From assembly GCA_031285745.1 (NCBI GenBank), contig JAITVQ010000164.1, positions 1-51,895 of the forward strand: DNA of 51,895 bases, read 5' to 3'. The notes beneath the pieces were generated by a model, which had not been told where the DNA came from, made no database searches, and was given only the letters and a program-made list of their open reading frames with translations. The position numbers and the translations under genes were made by a program. Positions 8,701-44,561 of this stretch are shown here, one piece after another (position 1 is the stretch's first letter; each line of letters begins with the position of its first letter). This stretch comes from Puniceicoccales bacterium (lineage in GTDB: Bacteria; Verrucomicrobiota; Verrucomicrobiia; Opitutales; UBA953).

Positions 8701-11700
8701 GCCTTGGTTTCTGCCAGCGAAACACGTACCGTTGGCAATGGCGAAACATTGGCACTGCTTAGCGCAAGTGCTACCAATGCCATTATTGAAATAGATGGCC
8801 AGGCTTGGCGGTTCAAGGGCTGGATTACCAACGGCGGCAGTACTGTTAATAATACTTCCGCCAGCTACACAACGCCAGCCCTCTACGCAGACACAGTGGT
8901 TAAAGCGGTGTTTGTTCGGGTTTATCAATTAACCGTACAAATCTCTCCCGATGAAAGTCCGGCGGTCGGAACGGCATCTCCTGCCAGCGGAGGTTGGCAT
9001 GATGCGGGGGCTACTGTTTCATTGACTGCCTCCGATATTGCGAGTTCAGGCTATGTCTTTGACACGTGGCAGAGTGATACTGGAGCTACATTTACTCCGG
9101 CTGCAGGACAACGCTCTGTGACCATTACGATGTCCAGTAACCATACGGTGACGGCGAAATTCAAATTGGGGAACAATTACCTGACGGTAAATGCCAGAGT
9201 CAATGGGATCGAAAATCCGGTTATCTCCGGATTGAATTTCACTGCAGGAAAGGATGGTAGTGCCAGCACGGAGACCCTTCTTCCCGGAGGAAACAAGGAA
9301 TATAACTCTTTTGATAAAGCGATAATCCAAGCGAATTATCCATCGACCAAGCTAGTTTTTAATAATTGGACCAGTACTCCTGGCAGTCTTTTAACTGCTA
9401 ACACTGCCAATCCTACCATGATAGAGATGGTTGGCAGCCAGAGCATCACTGCCAACTTTACCAGCATCCATACTGTTACTGTCGACACTCCGTTAGTGCT
9501 TGGAGGAGGAGCTGGCGGGGCCGAGTCTGCTACGGATCTCCGCGGAAAGAGCGGCAATGTTTATACTTATTACTATGGGGATCGGCCCCAGTTTACGGCA
9601 ACTGCAGACACTGGGTATCGTTTCCTTGGCTGGCAGATCGATACCGATAACGATTGGAATACCATTGAAGAAACCATTGGAGCAACAAGCCCTTATCCAC
9701 GCACAATTGCCGGGGATTTCCGAATTCGGGCAATTTATGCCAAAGAATATACCATCCAGTTTCTCACGGCTCCTGCAGATGGTTCGGGTGGTACAATTAA
9801 TAAACCTGCCTCGTATGTAGCCTACCATGGCGAAATAATCACCAACATCATTGCCACTGCCAATGATGTGATTGGGTATTCATTCTTCAAATGGACGAAC
9901 TCCACCGGTGCAGTGGATCGGGATGATATACTGATTAACAACAATGCCAGTGACACTATTTCTCTCAAGGTCACCGGGAGTACTGTTCTGACTGCCAACT
10001 TCACCCGGGGAGTGGCTGCTCAGATAAATCTGACTGTCGATATTAAGTTGGATGATGTGGTTAACCCAGCTGGTTGCACACTCACTGTTGCTGCAGGAAA
10101 TTCTACTGTTGAGGGCGAAAGTGCGACAACTTCACTTCTTGGAGGTCAAAGTAAACCTTATTACAAAGGTGATAATCCCGCGCTTGTAGCCAGTGTGCCT
10201 GCAGGCTATGAATTCATCGGATGGGAGGACAATTCTACACTACCTGGCCGGACAATTACTTACCTGCTGGGTAGCAAAACTGTCACTGCGATATACCGCA
10301 CCAAGGTGATTCTCACGATGGCCATTAATCCGGCTGGCATTGGCGATACTACGCCTACCGTGGGTGTCCATACCAGCTTGCCTGCTCCCATTGGGAATCT
10401 TTATCTTAATATGACTCCGAGTATCAGGAGTGATCTTTTTGCAAGCACCATCGATTATTACGCCTTTACTGGATGGACCGTCAACGCGGGGAGTCTGCCG
10501 GGAGATCCTAGCGAAGAGATTACCTCCATTTTGCTAGACGTGGCCGACAAACAGGTCACTGCCAATTATACGGCTGGCCACAAATTGGAGGTTCGGGTAA
10601 AATATGAAAACACGGCAAATACAGGAGATAGCAAAAGTTTTGCGATTGCTAGCGGAACCCGAACATCTGTAGCCAACGGAAACGGAAATCGGGCGGGGAT
10701 ATATTTGAGCAATCCGAATGCCATGGATTACTCTGTGCGGACAATTGCTGCCGGGCAAACGGCCAAGGTCAGCGCAATTCCTGCTGCGCCGGGGTATCGT
10801 TTTGTCGGATGGACTGACAGTCTTACCAGTGATACCCAGAATCTGGGAAGTGCTACCACCATGGATGTGGTCATGAACGGCCCCAAGACGCTGACTGCTA
10901 TCTTTGAGAAGGTCCGGGTCACGCTGGAAATCTATACTATTCCCTCCGGCAATCCTCAGGTTCGAGGGGAAGCCCTGGGTTGTCACCTTACCACAGGCCC
11001 AGAGCCGCGTGTGTATGAAGTCTTTTATGGGACTAAGCCTGCAATTGTCGCCACTTCCGAGGATGCAAGGTACGGGTTTGTTGCTTGGATTTATGGAGAA
11101 GGATATTCGAGCAATCCAACGCAGCGATTCTCTGAAATTGCCTCGACGGTTTATCCCGAGGAGCTTACCCAGCCAGTGACTAAGATTACCGCATATTTCC
11201 TCCCTTATGGGTTGCATCGCCTCATTCTTTTCACGGAACCTGAAAATGAAATAGACATTCATCATGTTAACGTTCCAGGCGCGGTTTATCAGACTTACTC
11301 AATGGTTGATGGACGCCCTGCTTGCATTGCCGATGTTGGGATCAATCATCCTTATAGCGAGATTCCCATCCATGCGGATGCTGGAGCAACAGGTTTGATA
11401 AATGGAAAAGGGTACGGGTTCCTTCGTTGGATTTCATATCCTGGATTTGAAGAATGCCTGACGTGGGTGAAAGAACTCTACAGCAATGATACCACGGTTA
11501 ATTTTCCATTAGGAAAAGAAGTCCGGCTGGTCGCGCTTTTCACCGCTGGTGAAGGCTATGATTTGCACCTAAGGATGGCTCTGGCTGCTGGCGGATTGAC
11601 CGTCATGGACAAGTATAAGGATAATTTCTTCAATATGGACCTGTTTGGGGATCTTCTCGGGAATGTAAAAGGAAATACGATTGATGGGTATTCCGGACGG

Positions 11701-33936: not shown

Positions 33937-35556
33937 TTACACAGCATTCTCTCCTAAGCACTTTTCCCACGTTAAGCCGAAACGAGCCAAATACTTCCTC
34001 AAACGGTCGGCATCATTGCGAGTCCTGCGCTTTTCTCCGGAAATATCGAACAAGTACCGCCCGGCTTCAGAGAGGTTTTTTGATTTTCGACAAGTTTCGA
34101 CCACGACAGACAACTGCACCTGGTCGAAGCGATCAATGTGGGAAAGGTGTTTTTTCCCGAGAACTTTTTCCAGCAAATCCACGGATGCCTGTGTTGATTG
34201 ATTGTCGGCATCGCCGCGCCAATCTTCCAATAACCGGGATCTCTCCTGTTCAAACACCTCCATATTAATCCTTCGACCGCGTGAAAGAGTGGCCATGCGG
34301 ACCAAGGCGGCGTTCAGATCACGGAAGTTTCCGCTCCAACGGGCCTCATGGCTGGTTGCGAAACGAAGAAATGCTTCCTCTGCCTCCTTGTTAAAGCGTA
34401 CCTGCTGGCCGAATTCGCGGGCCAGTTTCTCCAGCTCGTAACGCACGTTGGGCGCGATATCCTCCGGGCGCTCGCGCAGACCCGGCAGCCGAAAGCTCCA
34501 CAGGTTGATTCGGGCCAGTAGGTCGGCCCGGAAGTCGCCTTTTGTCACTGACTGTCGTAGATCCCGGTTGGTACCGCAGATGAACTGAAAATCGCTCTTG
34601 GCATCCTTGTCGGCGCCCAGGGGAAGAAATCGTTTTTCTTCCAATGCCCGTAATAGCATGGCTTGTTCGTCGGCACCCAACTCGCCGATCTCGTCCAGAA
34701 ACAACAAGCCATTGTGCGCCGCCTTGAGCAATCCCGGCCTGTCCGTGGTGGCACCGGTAAAGGAACCCTTTACATGTCCGAACAGGGCGGACATCGCGCT
34801 ATCGCCGCGCAGTGTCGCGCAATTTACCTCGACGAAATTGCCGCTCAACTGTCCCCGGGACTTCTTCAGCTCGTAAATACGCCGGGCCAGTTGCGATTTC
34901 CCCGCCCCCGTTGGCCCCATCAGCAAAACTGGCGCCCGGGAATGCAGTGCTACCTGCTCGATATCATCAATCATCCGATTGAAAGTGTCATTGCTCGTCT
35001 CAATGCCTGATTTCAGGAAGGCGGCGGTCTCCCGTTGCTCTTCCTCGAATCGGGCGGCCAGCCGATCATATTTCGACAGATCGAGGTCAATAATCCCATA
35101 GTTTCCCTCGGGCCCGTCATTGTTCCGCCGGGGTGGAAAGGTCTGGATCAATCGACCGGGCAGATGGCCCGACTCTGTCAGCAAAAACAAACAGATCTGC
35201 CCTACGTGACTCCCGGTGGTGATATGGATCAGGTAATCCTCTGAATCGGGGTCAAAAGACTGCTTCTTGGCATAATCATGCAGCGCGGAGTAAACACTCT
35301 CGAAATCCCAGGGATCCTTGTTGAAATCGACCTCTATCAGCCGAACCTCGGTCTCCGGTGATGCCGTCTGCATATCGGAGCTTACGCTTTCCGCCAACGC
35401 CTTGAATTGCGGTTCGTGCAACAGGTCGAACCGCGCAACCAGCAAATCTTCCTGCTGACAGAGTCCCACCGACGGTCGCCATTTGGACCAACGATCCTGC
35501 GGATGGCGTGAGTCAAGCTGGGTTCCCAGCAAACCAATCACAATCGTCCTTTTCAT
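33937..35556 (-). CDS. rtcR: Sigma-54-dependent regulator RtcR with N-terminal CARF-type domain
   Basis: N-terminus MKRTIVIGLLGTQLDS...RPSVGLCQQEDLLVARFDLL, ITTGSHVGQICLFLL; AAA+ motifs GPTGAGKS, GSFTGA (GAFTGA), LLFLDEIGEL; C-terminal HTH-like end. Confidence 0.93.
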   Translation of the reverse strand: MKRTIVIGLLGTQLDSRHPQDRWSKWRPSVGLCQQEDLLVARFDLLHEPQFKALAESVSSDMQTASPETEVRLIEVDFNKDPWDFESVYSALHDYAKKQSFDPDSEDYLIHITTGSHVGQICLFLLTESGHLPGRLIQTFPPRRNNDGPEGNYGIIDLDLSKYDRLAARFEEEQRETAAFLKSGIETSNDTFNRMIDDIEQVALHSRAPVLLMGPTGAGKSQLARRIYELKKSRGQLSGNFVEVNCATLRGDSAMSALFGHVKGSFTGATTDRPGLLKAAHNGLLFLDEIGELGADEQAMLLRALEEKRFLPLGADKDAKSDFQFICGTNRDLRQSVTKGDFRADLLARINLWSFRLPGLRERPEDIAPNVRYELEKLAREFGQQVRFNKEAEEAFLRFATSHEARWSGNFRDLNAALVRMATLSRGRRINMEVFEQERSRLLEDWRGDADNQSTQASVDLLEKVLGKKHLSHIDRFDQVQLSVVVETCRKSKNLSEAGRYLFDISGEKRRTRNDADRLRKYLARFGLTWEKCLGENAV

Positions 35557-35770: not shown

Positions 35771-37327
35771 ATGGCCAACAAAACACTCTTCTCAACCATC
35801 GCCTCTCTTGTGGCTCGCCCGGCGGACACCATCAACGAAGCCGGAGGGAAGGCCTACGCCCTGTCACCGCAGCAGGCACTTGCCCAATACGCGCTGACCG
35901 GCTGCCTCAACGGCACATTTTATGCCGAGGCGGAAGTCCAGTTGGCCAGGGTGATCGACCTGTGCTCCCAAGTGGATGACACCTTCATCGCCCGGCTGGC
36001 TGTGTATGCCCGGCACGAGGGTGGCATGAAAGACATGCCGGCACTGCTCTGCGCGATTCTTTCGACCCGGGATACCCGGCTCTTCAACTGGGTGGCGCGT
36101 TCGGTACTCAACTCATCCCGCTTGATCCGCACATTTGTCCAGATCATGCGCAGTGGGGCAGTAGGCCGAAAATCCTTGGGTACCCGTCCGAAGAAAGTCA
36201 TCATCGACTGGCTGAACCGGCTCGATGACGATACACTCTTCCGCCAATCCATTGGCGCGGATCCGTCACTCGGCGACATCATCAAGATGGTGCACCCGAC
36301 CCCGGCAACCCCGGCTCGCGAGGCGCTTTATGCCTACTTCACGGATCGTCCGCACAAGGCGGAAGTTTTGCCGACATTGGTCCGCGACTTCGAAGCCTTC
36401 AAGTTATCACCGCAAACGGTTTCCTTGCCGGATGTTCCGTTCCAGATGCTTACTTCATTCCCGCTCGGGGCCAAACAATGGGCGGATATCGCCCGGCGTG
36501 CCTCCTGGCAGACATTGCGAATGAACTTGAACACCTTGGCGCGTAACGGCGTCTTCTCGCTGCCGGGCATGAGTGCGACCATTGCCTCGCGTTTGCGTGA
36601 TGCGAATGCCATCCGGGCCGCCCGTGTGTTTCCTTACCAGATGCTCTCAGCCGCACGGCATGTTGACACCGCAGTTCCGCAGGAAGTGCAGCGGGTGCTG
36701 GAAGATGCCATGGAAATCTCCGTGGACAATGTTCCGGCCATCGCAGGCGACGTGGTCATCTGTGTTGATGTTTCGGGCTCCATGGAAAGTTCCATCACGG
36801 GCTATCGAAAAGGTGCGACCAGCAAAATCCGTTGTGTCGATGTCGCCGCGCTTATCGCGGCGGCTGTTCTCCGGAAGAACCCGCAGGCGCATGTCATCCC
36901 GTTTGCCGATGATGTGGTCTCGGTCTCATTGCGAACGGGGGCTACTGTCTTGGAAAACACCAATCGCCTGGCGGCAGCGCTCGGCGGCGGAACCAACTGC
37001 AGCGCGCCGTTGACCCGGCTCAACGCGCAGCGGGCCAAGGCCGACCTGATCATCTATGTCTCCGACAACCAGTCCTGGGTAGATGCCCGGTCAACGCATT
37101 GCACGGCGACCATGCAGGAATGGACCAAGTTCAAATCCCGCAATCGTCGGGCCCGGATGGTCTGCATTAACTTGCAGCCTTACGGGACCGCCCAGGCAAC
37201 AGGGAGCGCGGATATCCTCAACATCGGGGGATTTTCCGACCACGTCTTCCAGATGATTGCCGATTTTGCCCAAGGGCAGGATGGCGGCGATAGTCTCATC
37301 AAGCGGATCGAAGCCATCGAGCTTTGA
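35771..37327 (+). CDS. rsr: Ro60/Rsr ortholog (TROVE domain + vWA/MIDAS)
   Basis: TROVE-like N-terminus (YALSPQQALAQYALTGCLNGTFY...), C-terminal vWA with MIDAS VVICVDVSGSMESS; start at MANKTLFST with AGGAG upstream. Confidence 0.93.
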   Translation: MANKTLFSTIASLVARPADTINEAGGKAYALSPQQALAQYALTGCLNGTFYAEAEVQLARVIDLCSQVDDTFIARLAVYARHEGGMKDMPALLCAILSTRDTRLFNWVARSVLNSSRLIRTFVQIMRSGAVGRKSLGTRPKKVIIDWLNRLDDDTLFRQSIGADPSLGDIIKMVHPTPATPAREALYAYFTDRPHKAEVLPTLVRDFEAFKLSPQTVSLPDVPFQMLTSFPLGAKQWADIARRASWQTLRMNLNTLARNGVFSLPGMSATIASRLRDANAIRAARVFPYQMLSAARHVDTAVPQEVQRVLEDAMEISVDNVPAIAGDVVICVDVSGSMESSITGYRKGATSKIRCVDVAALIAAAVLRKNPQAHVIPFADDVVSVSLRTGATVLENTNRLAAALGGGTNCSAPLTRLNAQRAKADLIIYVSDNQSWVDARSTHCTATMQEWTKFKSRNRRARMVCINLQPYGTAQATGSADILNIGGFSDHVFQMIADFAQGQDGGDSLIKRIEAIEL

Positions 37328-37386: not shown

Positions 37387-37508
37387 GGCGCGAATGCCGT
37401 GAGAACTACATGGTCTCCCGGACGCCGGGTTCGAGTCCCGGCCCCTTGCCAGCAAGGGTAGCTCAGTGGTAGAGCAAGGAATTGTTTTCACACCACCTTT
37501 GTCGCGCC
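37387..37508 (+). ncRNA. Y-RNA-like unit 1, Ro-type basal stem plus permuted tRNA-like module
   Basis: P1 GGCGCGA/TCGCGCC; P2 GTGAGAAC/GTTTTCAC; T-arm CCGGG-TTCGAGT-CCCGG; acceptor-like CCCTTG-CCAG-CAAGGG; D-arm TAGCTCAGTGGTAGAGC, in that 5'-3' order. Confidence 0.88.
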
Positions 37509-37527
37509 TCCTGTTCTTTTTCAAATT

Positions 37528-37653
37528 TGCGTGAATGCCTTGGGAACTACATTGGTTGCGGGTTCGAATCCCGCCTCTCGCGAAGGACGCAACTGACTGT
37601 CGCGGGAGTAGCTCAATGGTAGAGCAGTCTGTTCCCGGATTCCTTGTCACGCA
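37528..37653 (+). ncRNA. Y-RNA-like unit 2, Ro-type basal stem plus permuted tRNA-like module
   Basis: P1 TGCGTGA/TCACGCA (covaries with unit 1); P2 TTGGGAAC/GTTCCCGG; T-arm GCGGG-TTCGAAT-CCCGC; acceptor-like CTCTCGCGA/TCGCGGGAG; D-arm TAGCTCAATGGTAGAGC. Confidence 0.88.
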
Positions 37654-37682
37654 TCCCGTTTTCAACCCTCTCCCGCCCCTTT

Positions 37683-37780
37683 GGCGCGAATGCCGGGGAA
37701 ACTACATGGTCTAATGTCGGTTCGAACCCGGCTTGCAGGTCTGGATAGCCTGCAAATGTTTCCTCAATCCTTGTCGCGCC
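37683..37780 (+). ncRNA. Y-RNA-like unit 3, T-arm only (no D-arm)
   Basis: P1 GGCGCGA/TCGCGCC; P2 GGGGAAAC/GTTTCCTC; T-arm GTCGG-TTCGAAC-CCGGC; then TTGCAGG-N9-CCTGCAA stem running straight into P2'. Confidence 0.82.
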
Positions 37781-37835
37781 TCCTGTGGCGTCGTCACCTT
37801 GACGGCACTGCCGGGAGAAGACACCATTTCACCTT

Positions 37836-37899
37836 GGGCCGAATGCCGCCGTGACTACATTTACACCATGTCTCCGTCACGGCAACCTCTTGTCGGTCC
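37836..37899 (+). ncRNA. Y-RNA-like unit 4, minimal stem-loop without tRNA-like module
   Basis: P1 GGGCCGA/TCGGTCC; conserved ATGCC internal loop; P2 GCCGTGAC/GTCACGGC (8 bp perfect); 20-nt loop starting TACAT as in the other units. Confidence 0.75.
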
Positions 37900-37929: not shown

Positions 37930-38955
37930 ATGTCCCTCATTCACATCGACGGTTCCGAAGGCGAAGGCGGCGGTCAAATCCTCCGTACTTCCCTCGCGCT
38001 TTCCATCATCACCGGCAAGCCCATCCGTATCGACAACATTCGTGCCGGACGCTCCAAGCCCGGGCTGCTCCGGCAGCACCTGGCCTCGGTCAAGGCGGCG
38101 GTGGAAATATCCCGCGCCAAGGCCGAGGGCGTTGCGCTTGGGTCAACCGCGCTCACTTTTCATCCCGGGAACGTTACTGCGGGAGAATACCGTTTCTCCA
38201 TTGGCTCGGCGGGCAGCGCCCTGCTGGTCTTCCAGACGATCCTCCTGCCCCTGCTTCATGCGGATGCTCCGAGCACGGTGACCATCGAGGGTGGTACGCA
38301 CAACCCGTTTGCCCCGCCGTTTCCGTTCATCGAAAAAACCTTCCTCCCCTTGCTGCACCAGATCGGCTACCAGGTCGAAGTGAAACTGGAACGTCCCGGC
38401 TTCTATCCGGCGGGTGGTGGTATCATCACGGCCACCATTACTCCGGGAGGAAAACGCCGCGTGCTCAAGATCGGGCCGCGCACGGAAATTCTGGATCGCG
38501 AAGCCATTGGCGTTGTTGCCAATCTTTCGCGCAAGATCGCCGAACGGGAACTGGAGCGACTGGGCTCCGCGATGAGCCTTGTTCCCGACGAAATGTGCAT
38601 CCACGAAATCAACGACACGCCTGGTCCCGGCAATGCCCTTTTCGTGAAACTGCGCAGCAGCCAGCTTACCGAAACCTTCTCCTCTTTTGGGGAACAGGGA
38701 CGGCATGCCGAAAAAGTGGCGGACGGACTGCACGACGAGGTCCGGCGGTACCTGAAAAGCAATGGTGCCGTCGGCGAACATCTGGCCGACCAGCTTCTGC
38801 TGCCGCTCGCCTTGGCCAAAGGGGGTGTTTTCACCACCCTGCCGCCTTCCCGCCACACCCAAACCAACATTGCGGTCATCGGACGCTTTCTCGATGCCCG
38901 CATCAACGTCCGGAAGATCGACCGCCTCGATTACGAAATCGAGGTCAAACCATAA
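37930..38955 (+). CDS. rtcA: RNA 3'-terminal phosphate cyclase
   Basis: HIDGSEGEGGGQILRTSLALSIITGKPIRIDNIRAGRSKPGLLRQHL, GGTHNPFAPPFPFIEKTFLPLL, GFYPAGGG and HLADQLLLPLALA motifs; start MSLIHIDGSEGEGG. Confidence 0.95.
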   Translation: MSLIHIDGSEGEGGGQILRTSLALSIITGKPIRIDNIRAGRSKPGLLRQHLASVKAAVEISRAKAEGVALGSTALTFHPGNVTAGEYRFSIGSAGSALLVFQTILLPLLHADAPSTVTIEGGTHNPFAPPFPFIEKTFLPLLHQIGYQVEVKLERPGFYPAGGGIITATITPGGKRRVLKIGPRTEILDREAIGVVANLSRKIAERELERLGSAMSLVPDEMCIHEINDTPGPGNALFVKLRSSQLTETFSSFGEQGRHAEKVADGLHDEVRRYLKSNGAVGEHLADQLLLPLALAKGGVFTTLPPSRHTQTNIAVIGRFLDARINVRKIDRLDYEIEVKP

Positions 38956-41434: not shown

Positions 41435-41795
41435 CTTTTGTTCGCGAACAATGCCACCATGTCGTTGTTCATGGCGTCTCTGTTCACGAACAAATGTATG
41501 AAGTACACTGGCGGTGTTATAATTGTTCGTAAACAAAACCGTGAAGTACACTGTACCTGTAGCAATCGTTCCTAAGCAGAGGTACCCCTGCAATGTAAAT
41601 GGTCCCATTGTTTCCGAACAAAACCATCAAGTACATTGTAGGTGTAATAATCGTTTCCGAACAGAGGTATGAAGTACAGTGTATGTGGCTCCAATGTTCG
41701 TGAACAAAACAATGAAGTGCAATGTACCTGTAACAATCGTTCGCGAACAAAAGAGCCATGACAATGTGGATGGCCCGATTGTTCACGAACGAAAG
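41435..41795. repeat. 42-43 bp tandem array, nine units centred on TGTTCGCGAACA-like palindromes
   Basis: Palindrome centres at about 41444.5, 41486.5, 41529.5, 41572.5, 41614.5, 41657.5, 41700.5, 41743.5 and 41785.5; spacers alternate between two types (~85 bp higher-order period). Confidence 0.85.
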
Positions 41796-42177: not shown

Positions 42178-43314
42178 TCAATTAGCTGAGCTGGGCGCAG
42201 TCCAAAGAACTGCTTCTTGGATGACATATTCCTCTATGTCGAAGGTAAACCGGTTTGGCAGGTGTAATTTTTCACTAACCCAATTCCAGGATGTTACCCA
42301 CCAAGGCGGGAATTTTCCAACCGTGCCGACAATCAACCCTTGATTGTTGATGTCAACGGCCTGGCTCCAATCAGCACCCATGGTGCCAAGATCACAAAAG
42401 CCCTGTTCCTGGCTCCAGAAAAAAGCCCGGGTGTTATTTTTCATTTTAAATATGCCGACGACCTGCTGACTGTCGTTGACATGGAAGGGAGTCGCGGTGT
42501 GGCCCAGATTCCCGATATTCCGGGTGCCGGATTCTTCTGTCCAGAGGAAGACGGGTACGTTGTCGGGAGACACATTTAAGCATCCCAATAGTTGTCCTTT
42601 GATAATAGGAACTCTGCCCCAGTCATTATGTTTGGGAAGTCCCAGGTCCTGCATGCCGTCTTTCTGCGTCCAGCGGAAAACATGAGTGGTCCCGTCTGCC
42701 AATTCCGATTCGCCGATGATGCATCCGGAATCATCGATATACCTAGGATAACTGTCTTTTCCGCCGAGCGTCCCGATGTCCTGTATTCCATTCTCACGGG
42801 ACCAGAAGAACGCATGGGTCTGGTCATTTCCCAGATAAAGATGTCCGGCAATCTGGCCTTTGTTATTGATGGCTGAGGCGAGACTACGGAGTCCGCTCAA
42901 AGTATCCAAGTTCTGCATACCTGACTCCTTGGTCCACAGAAATGCATGGGAGTTTCCGGCAGCAGTAGAGGAGTATCCGACGATCTGGCCCTTGTCATTC
43001 ATGGCAAAAGGCATGGTCATTGTTCCGCCCAAGGTGCCGATATCCTGCATCCCCGTTTCTTGGGTCCAAAGAAATCCCCGGGGAGGTGACTTTGCCAGAT
43101 AAAATCCCATGACTTCGCCGTCTTCATTAATACTAAGGGCGGTACTGAAATGTCCACTTGGGGCGCCCAGACGAATTCCACCTTTGGGTTGTGGTTCGAG
43201 ACAAATGGCCAGCAGGATGATGACAATGCCGGTGGCCAGTGCACAGATGACTATCTTGAAGTGCTTTTGCATACCAATCGCAGCCTTGGCTTTTGTTTTA
43301 AGCGACTTGGTCAT
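42178..43314 (-). CDS. HAF-repeat protein, membrane-anchored or exported
   Basis: N-terminal TM (ALATGIVIILLAICLEP) plus repeats 'HAFLWTKESGMQNLDTLSG..S.A.AINNKGQIAG'. Confidence 0.85.
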   Translation of the reverse strand: MTKSLKTKAKAAIGMQKHFKIVICALATGIVIILLAICLEPQPKGGIRLGAPSGHFSTALSINEDGEVMGFYLAKSPPRGFLWTQETGMQDIGTLGGTMTMPFAMNDKGQIVGYSSTAAGNSHAFLWTKESGMQNLDTLSGLRSLASAINNKGQIAGHLYLGNDQTHAFFWSRENGIQDIGTLGGKDSYPRYIDDSGCIIGESELADGTTHVFRWTQKDGMQDLGLPKHNDWGRVPIIKGQLLGCLNVSPDNVPVFLWTEESGTRNIGNLGHTATPFHVNDSQQVVGIFKMKNNTRAFFWSQEQGFCDLGTMGADWSQAVDINNQGLIVGTVGKFPPWWVTSWNWVSEKLHLPNRFTFDIEEYVIQEAVLWTAPSSAN

Positions 43315-43355
43315 AAGCGTGGGTTACTTTTATCAATGAGCGGGGCTGCCTGCCC

Positions 43356-44561
43356 TTAATCAGCAGAGTCGTTTTTGTTATCTTCAGGATTGTTGACCGC
43401 GAGAGGAGGTGGTGCGAACCAGAGTGCTGCTTCGGAGGGAGCGTATTTCTTCAAATCCAAGAAATATTTTTGGGATAGATCCAATTTCTTGCCAACCCAA
43501 TTCCAGGACTTCACCCACCACGGGGCGAGGCTCCCGACGGTGCCGGTAATCTGCCCTTGATTATTGATACTAGTGGCGCGGCTCCAATCGAGGCCGAGGG
43601 TGCCCAAATCGTGCAAACCCTGCTCCTTGCTCCAGAAGAAGGCCCGGTTGCCGTCCTTGGTCCTGAGCGTGCCGACGATTTGCTGTTTACTGTTGATGCA
43701 ATGCGGGGTGCCGTCACCACCCAGATCCCCGAGGTCTTGGATGCCGGTTTCTTTTGTCCAAAGATAGGCGTGGGTTGCGCCCTGCGGTGTTTTAAATGTG
43801 CCGAGTATCTGTCCCTTGATGAAAGGATTTTTATCCCAATTATCTTGTGCAGGGACTCCCAGATTCTGCATGCCCTGTTCCTTGTTCCACTGGAAAACAT
43901 GAGAGGTCCCGTCGGTCGATTCCGATAGGCCGATGATGAACCCGGTGTCATCAATATATCTGGGATCACTGCCTATCCCACCCAAGGTATCGAGTTTCTG
44001 CATGCCCGATTCCTTTGTCCAGATGAACGCATGCTTTTTCCCATCGAGTGAATAGGCATAGCCGGTGACTTGCCCCTTGTCATTGATGGATCTGGCGAGG
44101 CTTATGTTCCCGCCCAGGGTGCCGAGATTCTGCATCCCGGACTCCTTGCTCCACAGGAACGCGTGGGAGTGCCCATTGGCAAGATTGGACCACCCGATGA
44201 CCTACCCATCACGATTAATCCCGAACGGCATGCTGATGGACCCTCCGAGAGACCCCAAGTCCTGCATGCCCGACTCCTTGTCCCAGAAGAAAGCCCGGGA
44301 GTATCCTTCCGGTTTGGTCTGGATCACCCCGATAATCTGTCCTTTTTCGTTAATGCTACCTGCATAACTTGAAAGTCCCCCCATGGAGCCCAAACGGATT
44401 CCACCTTTGGGCGGCGGTTCGAGATAAACGGCCAGCAGGATGATGAAGATGCCGATGACAAGTGAACAGACGGCAACCCTGAAATGCTTTTGCCTTCCAG
44501 ATGTGGTTTTGATGTGGAGAGGGGCGTTGGGAAGGGAAGAGCGGGGCTCGGGCATAAACAA
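43356..44561 (-). pseudogene. HAF-repeat paralog interrupted by an in-frame TAG
   Basis: ORFs 44202-44561 and 43356-44135 lie in the same frame; TAG at 44204-44202 sits where the paralog has the conserved Gln of 'DGQVIGW/KGQIVGY'. Confidence 0.75.

What the first reader, a model, noticed from the sequence alone, without database searches (positions are those of the whole stretch)
37399..37638. Units 1 and 2 carry circularly permuted tRNA-like modules
In both units the order 5'-3' is P2 (anticodon-stem position), T-arm (CCGGG-TTCGAGT-CCCGG; GCGGG-TTCGAAT-CCCGC), acceptor-like 3' strand, closing loop (4 nt CCAG in unit 1; 16 nt in unit 2), acceptor-like 5' strand, D-arm (TAGCTCAGTGGTAGAGC; TAGCTCAATGGTAGAGC), P2'. 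The D- and T-arms match tRNA consensus almost exactly, but the acceptor is closed by a loop and the ends sit at the anticodon stem. The acceptor-like stems differ completely between units (CCCTTG/CAAGGG versus CTCTCGCGA/TCGCGGGAG) and both pair. Bacterial Y RNAs that mimic tRNA are established knowledge. A tRNA-modifying enzyme (e.g. T-loop or D-loop modification) could recognise these.
Basis: partly seen in the sequence, partly recalled or inferred. Interest (0 to 1): 0.85.

Follow-up and report, generated by a model that had tools for sequence, protein, structure and literature searches.

The report
tRNA-mimicking Y RNAs beside Ro60
The odd "inside-out tRNAs" are real, but they are YrlA-type Y RNAs, a known class of bacterial tRNA-mimicking RNA, lying in a Ro60/RNA-repair operon; the less expected point is that related operons carry rows of such RNAs whose heads imitate different tRNAs, including the initiator and leucine tRNAs.

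Summary
At 37387-37511 and 37528-37656 two RNAs fold with T-arm, loop-closed acceptor and D-arm in circularly permuted order. Covariation supports the fold: 92.5% of pair cells form pairs against 74.7% in shuffles, and 22 of 30 pairs show double-sided changes. They are YrlA-type Y RNAs (Rfam RF02553: 77.5 bits for unit 2, 60.1 for unit 1; gathering score 69) in an RNA-repair operon, RtcR <- / Ro60 -> Y-RNA array -> RtcA -> RtcB. tRNA mimicry by YrlA, its modification by tRNA enzymes and its crystal structure are already published, so the core finding is a new member of a known kind.

Beyond the finding: the window holds four units, two with T+D arms, one with a T-arm but no D-arm, one minimal. 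With 48 related loci I detected about 200 distinct units. Eleven carry a D-arm that best matches initiator tRNA and ten one that best matches tRNA-Leu, eight of the ten with a variable-arm-like hairpin. Arrays therefore appear to mimic different tRNAs. I found no report of this in the held library, but the key Y-RNA papers were not available to me.

The parts
33937..35556 (-). rtcR: regulator of the RNA-repair operon (RtcR N-terminal domain plus sigma-54 activator domain), divergent from ro60
   Evidence: Pfam RtcR 262.9 bits, Sigma54_activat 164.8 bits
35712..35728 (+). sigma-54 (-24/-12) promoter-like site TTGGCATGCTGCTGGCA
   Evidence: 1 mismatch to YTGGCAYGNNNNTTGCW; one of two sites with at most 1 mismatch in the window, lying in the rtcR/ro60 intergenic region. 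Consensus match only
35771..37327 (+). ro60/rsr orthologue (TROVE + vWA)
   Evidence: Pfam vWA_Ro60 71.4 bits, TROVE 27.5 bits; Rsr 2nvo E 7e-18 over nearly the whole length. Start codon inferred from an upstream GGA-rich ribosome-binding site
37387..37511 (+). Y RNA unit 1: YrlA type, full tRNA-like head (T-arm 37425-37441, acceptor-like stem 37443-37448/37453-37458, D-arm 37461-37475)
   Evidence: Rfam YrlA 60.1 bits, E 4e-13 (below the gathering score of 69); covariation
37528..37656 (+). Y RNA unit 2: YrlA type, full tRNA-like head (T-arm 37558-37574, acceptor-like stem 37575-37583/37600-37608, D-arm 37611-37625)
   Evidence: Rfam YrlA 77.5 bits, above gathering; covariation
37683..37783 (+). 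Y RNA unit 3: T-arm (37716-37732) followed by one closed hairpin (37733-37755), no D-arm (T-only class)
   Evidence: Rfam YrlA 38.8 bits, E 6e-7 (below gathering); T-only units recur in other arrays
37836..37899 (+). Y RNA unit 4: minimal, no tRNA-like head (YrlB-like)
   Evidence: 7-bp basal stem GGGCCGA/TCGGTCC and the GAATGC...GACTACAT...TTGTC motifs; Rfam YrlB 20.9 bits, E 0.18, not significant on its own
37930..38955 (+). rtcA: RNA 3'-terminal phosphate cyclase
   Evidence: Pfam RTC 260 bits
38975..40357 (+). rtcB: RNA ligase
   Evidence: Pfam RtcB 294.7 bits

Best explanation
Units 1 and 2 are YrlA-type bacterial Y RNAs, the first two of a four-unit Y-RNA array in an RtcR-linked ro60-Y RNA-rtcA-rtcB RNA-repair operon. 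Shown by sequence and comparison: the basal stem, the conserved AAUGC, ACUACAU and UUGU motifs, P2, and a head made of T-arm, loop-closed acceptor and D-arm in permuted order. Inferred from published work on relatives: the basal part is held by Ro60; the head imitates the tRNA elbow, is modified by TruB and Dus enzymes, and docks PNPase, so that Ro60 and PNPase act together on structured or damaged RNA; the operon is switched on when tRNAs are cleaved. Units 3 and 4, with reduced heads, should bind Ro60 but engage tRNA-recognising partners partly or not at all. The confidence given is for the identity; for the PNPase-docking role in this organism it is about 0.6.
For: Rfam YrlA match for unit 2 above gathering; units 1 and 3 match with E 4e-13 and 6e-7. 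Operon context RtcR/Ro60/RtcA/RtcB and a sigma-54-like site. Only YrlA locus in the genome. The same kind of array next to Ro60 in a same-genus genome (L004), in a Pirellulales MAG (L007) and in 46 further loci. Covariation of basal stem, P2, T-stem and acceptor. The D-stem flips from GCTC/GAGC to GAGC/GCTC in 11 units with pairing kept. TruB, two Dus and PNPase present in the genome. Published function: Ro60 tether, PNPase complex (RYPER) and DusA/TruB modification (PMC8394870); operon induced by tRNA fragments (PMC7790460).
Against: Unit 1 is below the Rfam gathering score and its minimum-energy fold does not show the D-arm. The anticodon-stem equivalent P3 is weak in both window units. No expression, binding or modification data exist for this organism. 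Rsr/Y RNA/PNPase function has been studied in very few species.
Confidence: 0.9

Rival explanations
1. Decoy reading, which can coexist with the main one: the heads act mainly as bait for anticodon nucleases or other tRNA enzymes during stress. They resemble tRNA at elbow and acceptor but offer no anticodon loop to cut.
For: Hughes et al. suggest competitive inhibition of the anticodon nuclease by YrlA (PMC7790460). In relatives one array carries heads resembling elongator, initiator and Leu tRNAs, which suits a decoy set better than a single PNPase docking module.
Against: No binding data. T-only and minimal units make poor decoys. PNPase docking is the published role of the head.
Confidence: 0.3
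2. Genuine circularly permuted tRNA genes, as in some algae and archaea: the transcript is cut, its ends joined (RtcB is in the operon), and a functional tRNA released.
For: Permuted order of the halves; RtcB is a tRNA-splicing type ligase; an Rfam tRNA hit of 42.5 bits spans unit 1's D-arm and unit 2's T-arm.
Against: No anticodon loop in units 1 and 2; the P2 helix occupies that place. The tRNA hit joins halves of two different RNAs. ARAGORN finds no tRNA here. Normal tRNA genes for nearly all isotypes are found elsewhere in the genome; Ile was not seen in this draft assembly. Closing loops range from 4 nt to over 40 nt.
Confidence: 0.02
3. Decayed tandem tRNA genes (T-arm of one, D-arm of the next) that only look like Y RNAs.
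For: Real tandem tRNA pairs do give weak YrlA hits (L005, L006: about 30 bits).
Against: Units 1 and 2 score 60-77 bits, carry the basal stem and motifs, and covary within units. Such units lie beside Ro60 in all but one of the orthologue loci examined.
Confidence: 0.02
4. The structures are mainly cis elements of the operon mRNA (leader or attenuator of rtcA) rather than separate RNAs.
For: They lie between ro60 and rtcA, and unit 3 contains a terminator-like hairpin.
Against: Each unit closes with its own 7-bp basal stem; unit number and order vary between genomes; known YrlA RNAs are separate RNAs bound to Rsr.
Confidence: 0.05

Closest known systems
YrlA (Rfam RF02553), e.g. Salmonella YrlA, crystal structure 6CU1 (Wang et al. 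2018, cited in PMC8394870)
   Same: Basal Ro60-binding stem, P2, and a permuted tRNA-like head (T-arm, loop-closed acceptor, D-arm); encoded next to rsr and rtc genes
   Different: Four tandem units here, one of them T-arm-only. Acceptor closing loops of 4 and 16 nt. Two of the three YrlA-like units score below the Rfam cut-off
YrlB (Rfam RF02565)
   Same: Unit 4 shares its stem, the AAUGC and UUGUC motifs and a small hairpin
   Different: Score 20.9 bits, far below the gathering score of 97
Salmonella rsr-yrlBA-rtcBA RNA-repair operon (PMC7790460, PMC9879122)
   Same: RtcR divergent; Ro60, Y RNAs, RtcA and RtcB together; sigma-54-type promoter
   Different: Order here is ro60-Y array-rtcA-rtcB, with more Y units
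Permuted tRNA genes of algae and archaea (own knowledge)
   Same: 3' half precedes 5' half
   Different: Those keep an anticodon loop and are processed to tRNA; these lack it

Membership tests
YrlA bacterial Y RNA (RF02553) | Covariance-model match above the curated cut-off | tested here: met
   Unit 2: 77.5 bits against 69. Unit 1 reaches 60.1 and unit 3 38.8, both below the cut-off but with E 4e-13 and 6e-7
YrlA bacterial Y RNA (RF02553) | tRNA-like head with T-arm, closed acceptor stem and D-arm | tested here: met
   Units 1 and 2, supported by covariation. Not met by unit 3 (no D-arm) or unit 4
YrlA bacterial Y RNA (RF02553) | Basal stem formed by the 5' and 3' ends, with conserved Ro60-binding motifs | tested here: met
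   7-bp stems in all four units; in 24 homologues 95.2% of cells paired, double changes in 6 of 7 pairs
YrlA bacterial Y RNA (RF02553) | Encoded next to a Ro60/Rsr orthologue | tested here: met
YrlA bacterial Y RNA (RF02553) | Binding of Ro60 and PNPase; dihydrouridine and pseudouridine in the loops | not testable with these tools
   Enzymes present in the genome; binding and modification need experiments
Permuted tRNA gene | Anticodon loop present and mature tRNA produced | tested here: not met
   No anticodon loop in units 1 and 2; ARAGORN none. Mature product not testable
RtcR-controlled RNA-repair operon | rtcR divergent from an rtcA/rtcB operon with a sigma-54 promoter | tested here: met
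   promoter by consensus only

The most novel reading that the evidence does not exclude
Ro60-linked Y-RNA arrays in this bacterial class are panels of mimics of different tRNAs: most heads resemble elongator tRNAs, some the initiator tRNA (inverted D-stem GAGC/GCTC), some tRNA-Leu (GGCGGAA..GACGC D-arm plus a long variable arm), and others are stripped to a T-arm or nothing. Ro60 would thereby present several tRNA look-alikes to nucleases, modification enzymes or PNPase during tRNA damage.
Probability: 0.5. Interest if true: 0.65.

Novelty: new member of a known kind. Interest (0 to 1): 0.42.

Why it matters
For the window itself, it places a tRNA-mimic Y-RNA array in an RNA-repair operon and corrects what annotation tools would call a tRNA. 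If the wider pattern holds, about 200 natural Y RNAs with different heads give a ready comparative set for asking what the tRNA-like domain is for: PNPase docking should not care which tRNA is copied, whereas decoy or modification roles should.

Tried and rejected
1. Energy folding as proof: z-scores of -3.5 and -2.0, and about -0.7 for the heads alone; not convincing, so replaced by covariation.

2. Permuted or intron-containing tRNA: the Rfam tRNA hit 37452-37582 joins halves of units 1 and 2; rejected.

3. Rfam YrlA hits in relatives G041 and G053 (L005, L006) overlap real tandem tRNA pairs. The sub-cut-off hits in named control genomes may be of the same kind; not checked.

4. Assigning units 1 and 2 to one particular tRNA of their own genome: the best scores are mostly near-ties, so no specific parent tRNA is claimed.

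5. A strict TGGC-N7-TTGC sigma-54 search found nothing before ro60; a looser consensus did.

6. The genome-contig search with Ro60 gave one relative only; the genome search gave the set used.

7. The first variable-arm test used a faulty T-loop pattern and was corrected. In one search several minus-strand loci were not reoriented; corrected. Loci L137 and L146 repeat L039 and L045; identical unit sequences were counted once.

Full report
Observation. In both units the order is P2, T-arm, acceptor-like 3' strand, closing loop, acceptor-like 5' strand, D-arm, P2'. All named pairings are present. Unit 1 stacks T-stem and acceptor to about 12 pairs if the flanking G-C is counted, as in tRNA; unit 2 has 5+9.

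Identity. Rfam puts unit 2 in YrlA above the gathering score (77.5 against 69). With permissive filters unit 1 (60.1 bits, E 4e-13) and a third unit (38.8 bits, E 6e-7) also match, and a fourth resembles YrlB weakly (20.9 bits, E 0.18). All three YrlA hits of the 2.96-Mb genome lie here. The flanking genes are RtcR on the minus strand, a TROVE+vWA Ro60 orthologue upstream, and RtcA and RtcB downstream; Ro60 matches the solved Rsr (2nvo) over almost its whole length. A -24/-12-like site with one mismatch lies between rtcR and ro60. It is a consensus match only, but the Salmonella operon likewise has a sigma-54 promoter before rsr (PMC9879122).

Is the fold real? Energy folding is only moderately unusual. 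The comparative evidence is strong. In 24 full-head units, 92.5% of pair cells form standard pairs against 74.7% for shuffled partners, 22 of 30 pairs show changes on both sides, 0 of 500 shuffles reach the observed values, and sliding the partners by 1-3 columns gives 36-48%. In a larger set without a multiple alignment, acceptor strands pair 6.04 of 7 with their own partner against a mean of 3.93, maximum 4.34, with swapped partners over 2000 shuffles. The D-stem never varies among the 24 elongator-type heads, but in 11 other units it is inverted to GAGC/GCTC with all four pairs kept. These shuffles do not preserve relatedness, so the counts overstate independence; the slide control and the number of distinct helices (64 acceptor helices in 93 units) argue that the signal is real.

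Array anatomy. All four units share a 7-bp basal stem and the AAUGC, ACUACA(U) and UUGUC motifs. Units 1 and 2 carry full heads. Unit 3 has a T-arm and one closed hairpin but no D-arm. Unit 4 has no head. In the same-genus genome G006 (L004) a full unit is followed by a T-arm-bearing unit without a recognisable D-arm and a minimal one, the same order (read by eye; the detector found the first and last). A Pirellulales MAG (L007) has minimal, T-only, full, full. So the graded set is not a local accident.

Wider comparison. Ro60 orthologues were collected in two more families of the class and a stem-and-motif detector was run on 52 entries, the window included. Two entries repeat others (L137 = L039, L146 = L045) and one (L181) gave no unit. 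The rest gave 211 units, 201 of distinct sequence, at most nine per locus. The detector is my own and admits some false units: two entries longer than 200 nt are doubtful. Most heads are elongator-like. In one family 11 units have D-arms that best match the initiator tRNA and 10 have D-arms that best match tRNA-Leu among 47 distinct tRNAs of genome G308; in that genome only the initiator tRNA has the inverted D-stem. The D-arm classes were picked by pattern, so this match is partly built in, and for some short initiator-type D-loops the lead over the next tRNA is small. An independent feature agrees for the Leu-like class: a hairpin of at least 4 pairs just before the T-arm, where type II tRNAs have their long variable arm, is present in 8 of 10 Leu-like units against 9 of 107 others (Fisher p 1.4e-6; related units are not independent). 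Seven of the ten Leu-like units have lost the standard T-loop sequence. T-only units also recur; 16 of 20 have a closed stem of at least 5 pairs after the T-arm against about 20% of shuffled sequences.

Mechanism. From published work reviewed in PMC8394870, the basal stem of YrlA binds Rsr, the head binds PNPase to form RYPER, and DusA and TruB modify the loops. [quoted passage not shown] This genome encodes TruB, two Dus proteins and PNPase. The likeliest reading is a stress-induced RNA-repair operon whose Y RNAs link Ro60 to tRNA-recognising partners. Identity is shown by sequence; binding, modification and induction here are inferred.

Not a tRNA gene. Units 1 and 2 lack an anticodon loop, ARAGORN finds nothing, and the genome has ordinary tRNA genes for nearly all isotypes, including an initiator cut by a contig end; Ile was not seen in this draft. 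The Rfam tRNA hit at 37452-37582 joins two Y RNAs. The reverse error also occurs: tandem tRNAs score as weak YrlA (L005, L006).

Novelty. tRNA mimicry by YrlA is established, so units 1 and 2 are new members of a known kind. From memory, not checked here, Chen et al. 2014 reported that many species have several Y RNAs with at least one tRNA-like. I found no mention of initiator-like, Leu-like or T-only Y RNAs in the held library, but the central Y-RNA papers and the 2020 review are not held, so absence of a report is weak evidence.

Limits. No expression data were available.

Noticed in passing
L041, L042, L046, L166, L168-L170, L173, L174, L178, L184 (arrays after Ro60): Y-RNA heads with the inverted, initiator-type D-stem GAGC/GCTC; the D-arm best matches initiator tRNA in 11 of 11.
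   Followed up: partly
L040, L041, L042, L046, L164-L166, L169, L171, L178: Y-RNA heads with a tRNA-Leu-like D-arm, 8 of 10 with a variable-arm-like hairpin before the T-arm; seven have an altered T-loop such as TAACCAAC or TATCCAAT.
   Followed up: partly
Last elongator-type unit in many f26-family arrays, e.g. L041 9993-10121 (minus strand), L166 3827-3956: A 7-nt loop resembling an anticodon loop (TTCGTAA, CTCATAA) precedes the T-arm; L041's stretch ATCATTCGTAATGACCAGGTC is close to part of G308 tRNA-Thr(CGT).
   Followed up: no
Acceptor closing loops, e.g. L044, L173, L186, L188 ACCATCGAC; window unit 1 CCAG (37449-37452): Several closing loops begin with ACCA or CCA right after the acceptor strand, as if a CCA end had been retained.
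   Followed up: no
window 37452-37582; L005 and L006: Annotation trap: tandem Y RNAs produce a false tRNA hit and tandem tRNAs produce weak false YrlA hits.
   Followed up: yes
L041 about 9500-9980 (minus strand): About 500 bases, apparently including a coding sequence, sit between Y-RNA units of the array.
   Followed up: no
window 41524-41749: 86-bp tandem repeat, 2.6 copies, 73% matches.
   Followed up: no
window 42178-44561, minus strand: Neighbouring ORFs full of 'GTLGG...A..IN..GQIVG' repeats; they look like HAF-repeat proteins by eye.
   Followed up: no
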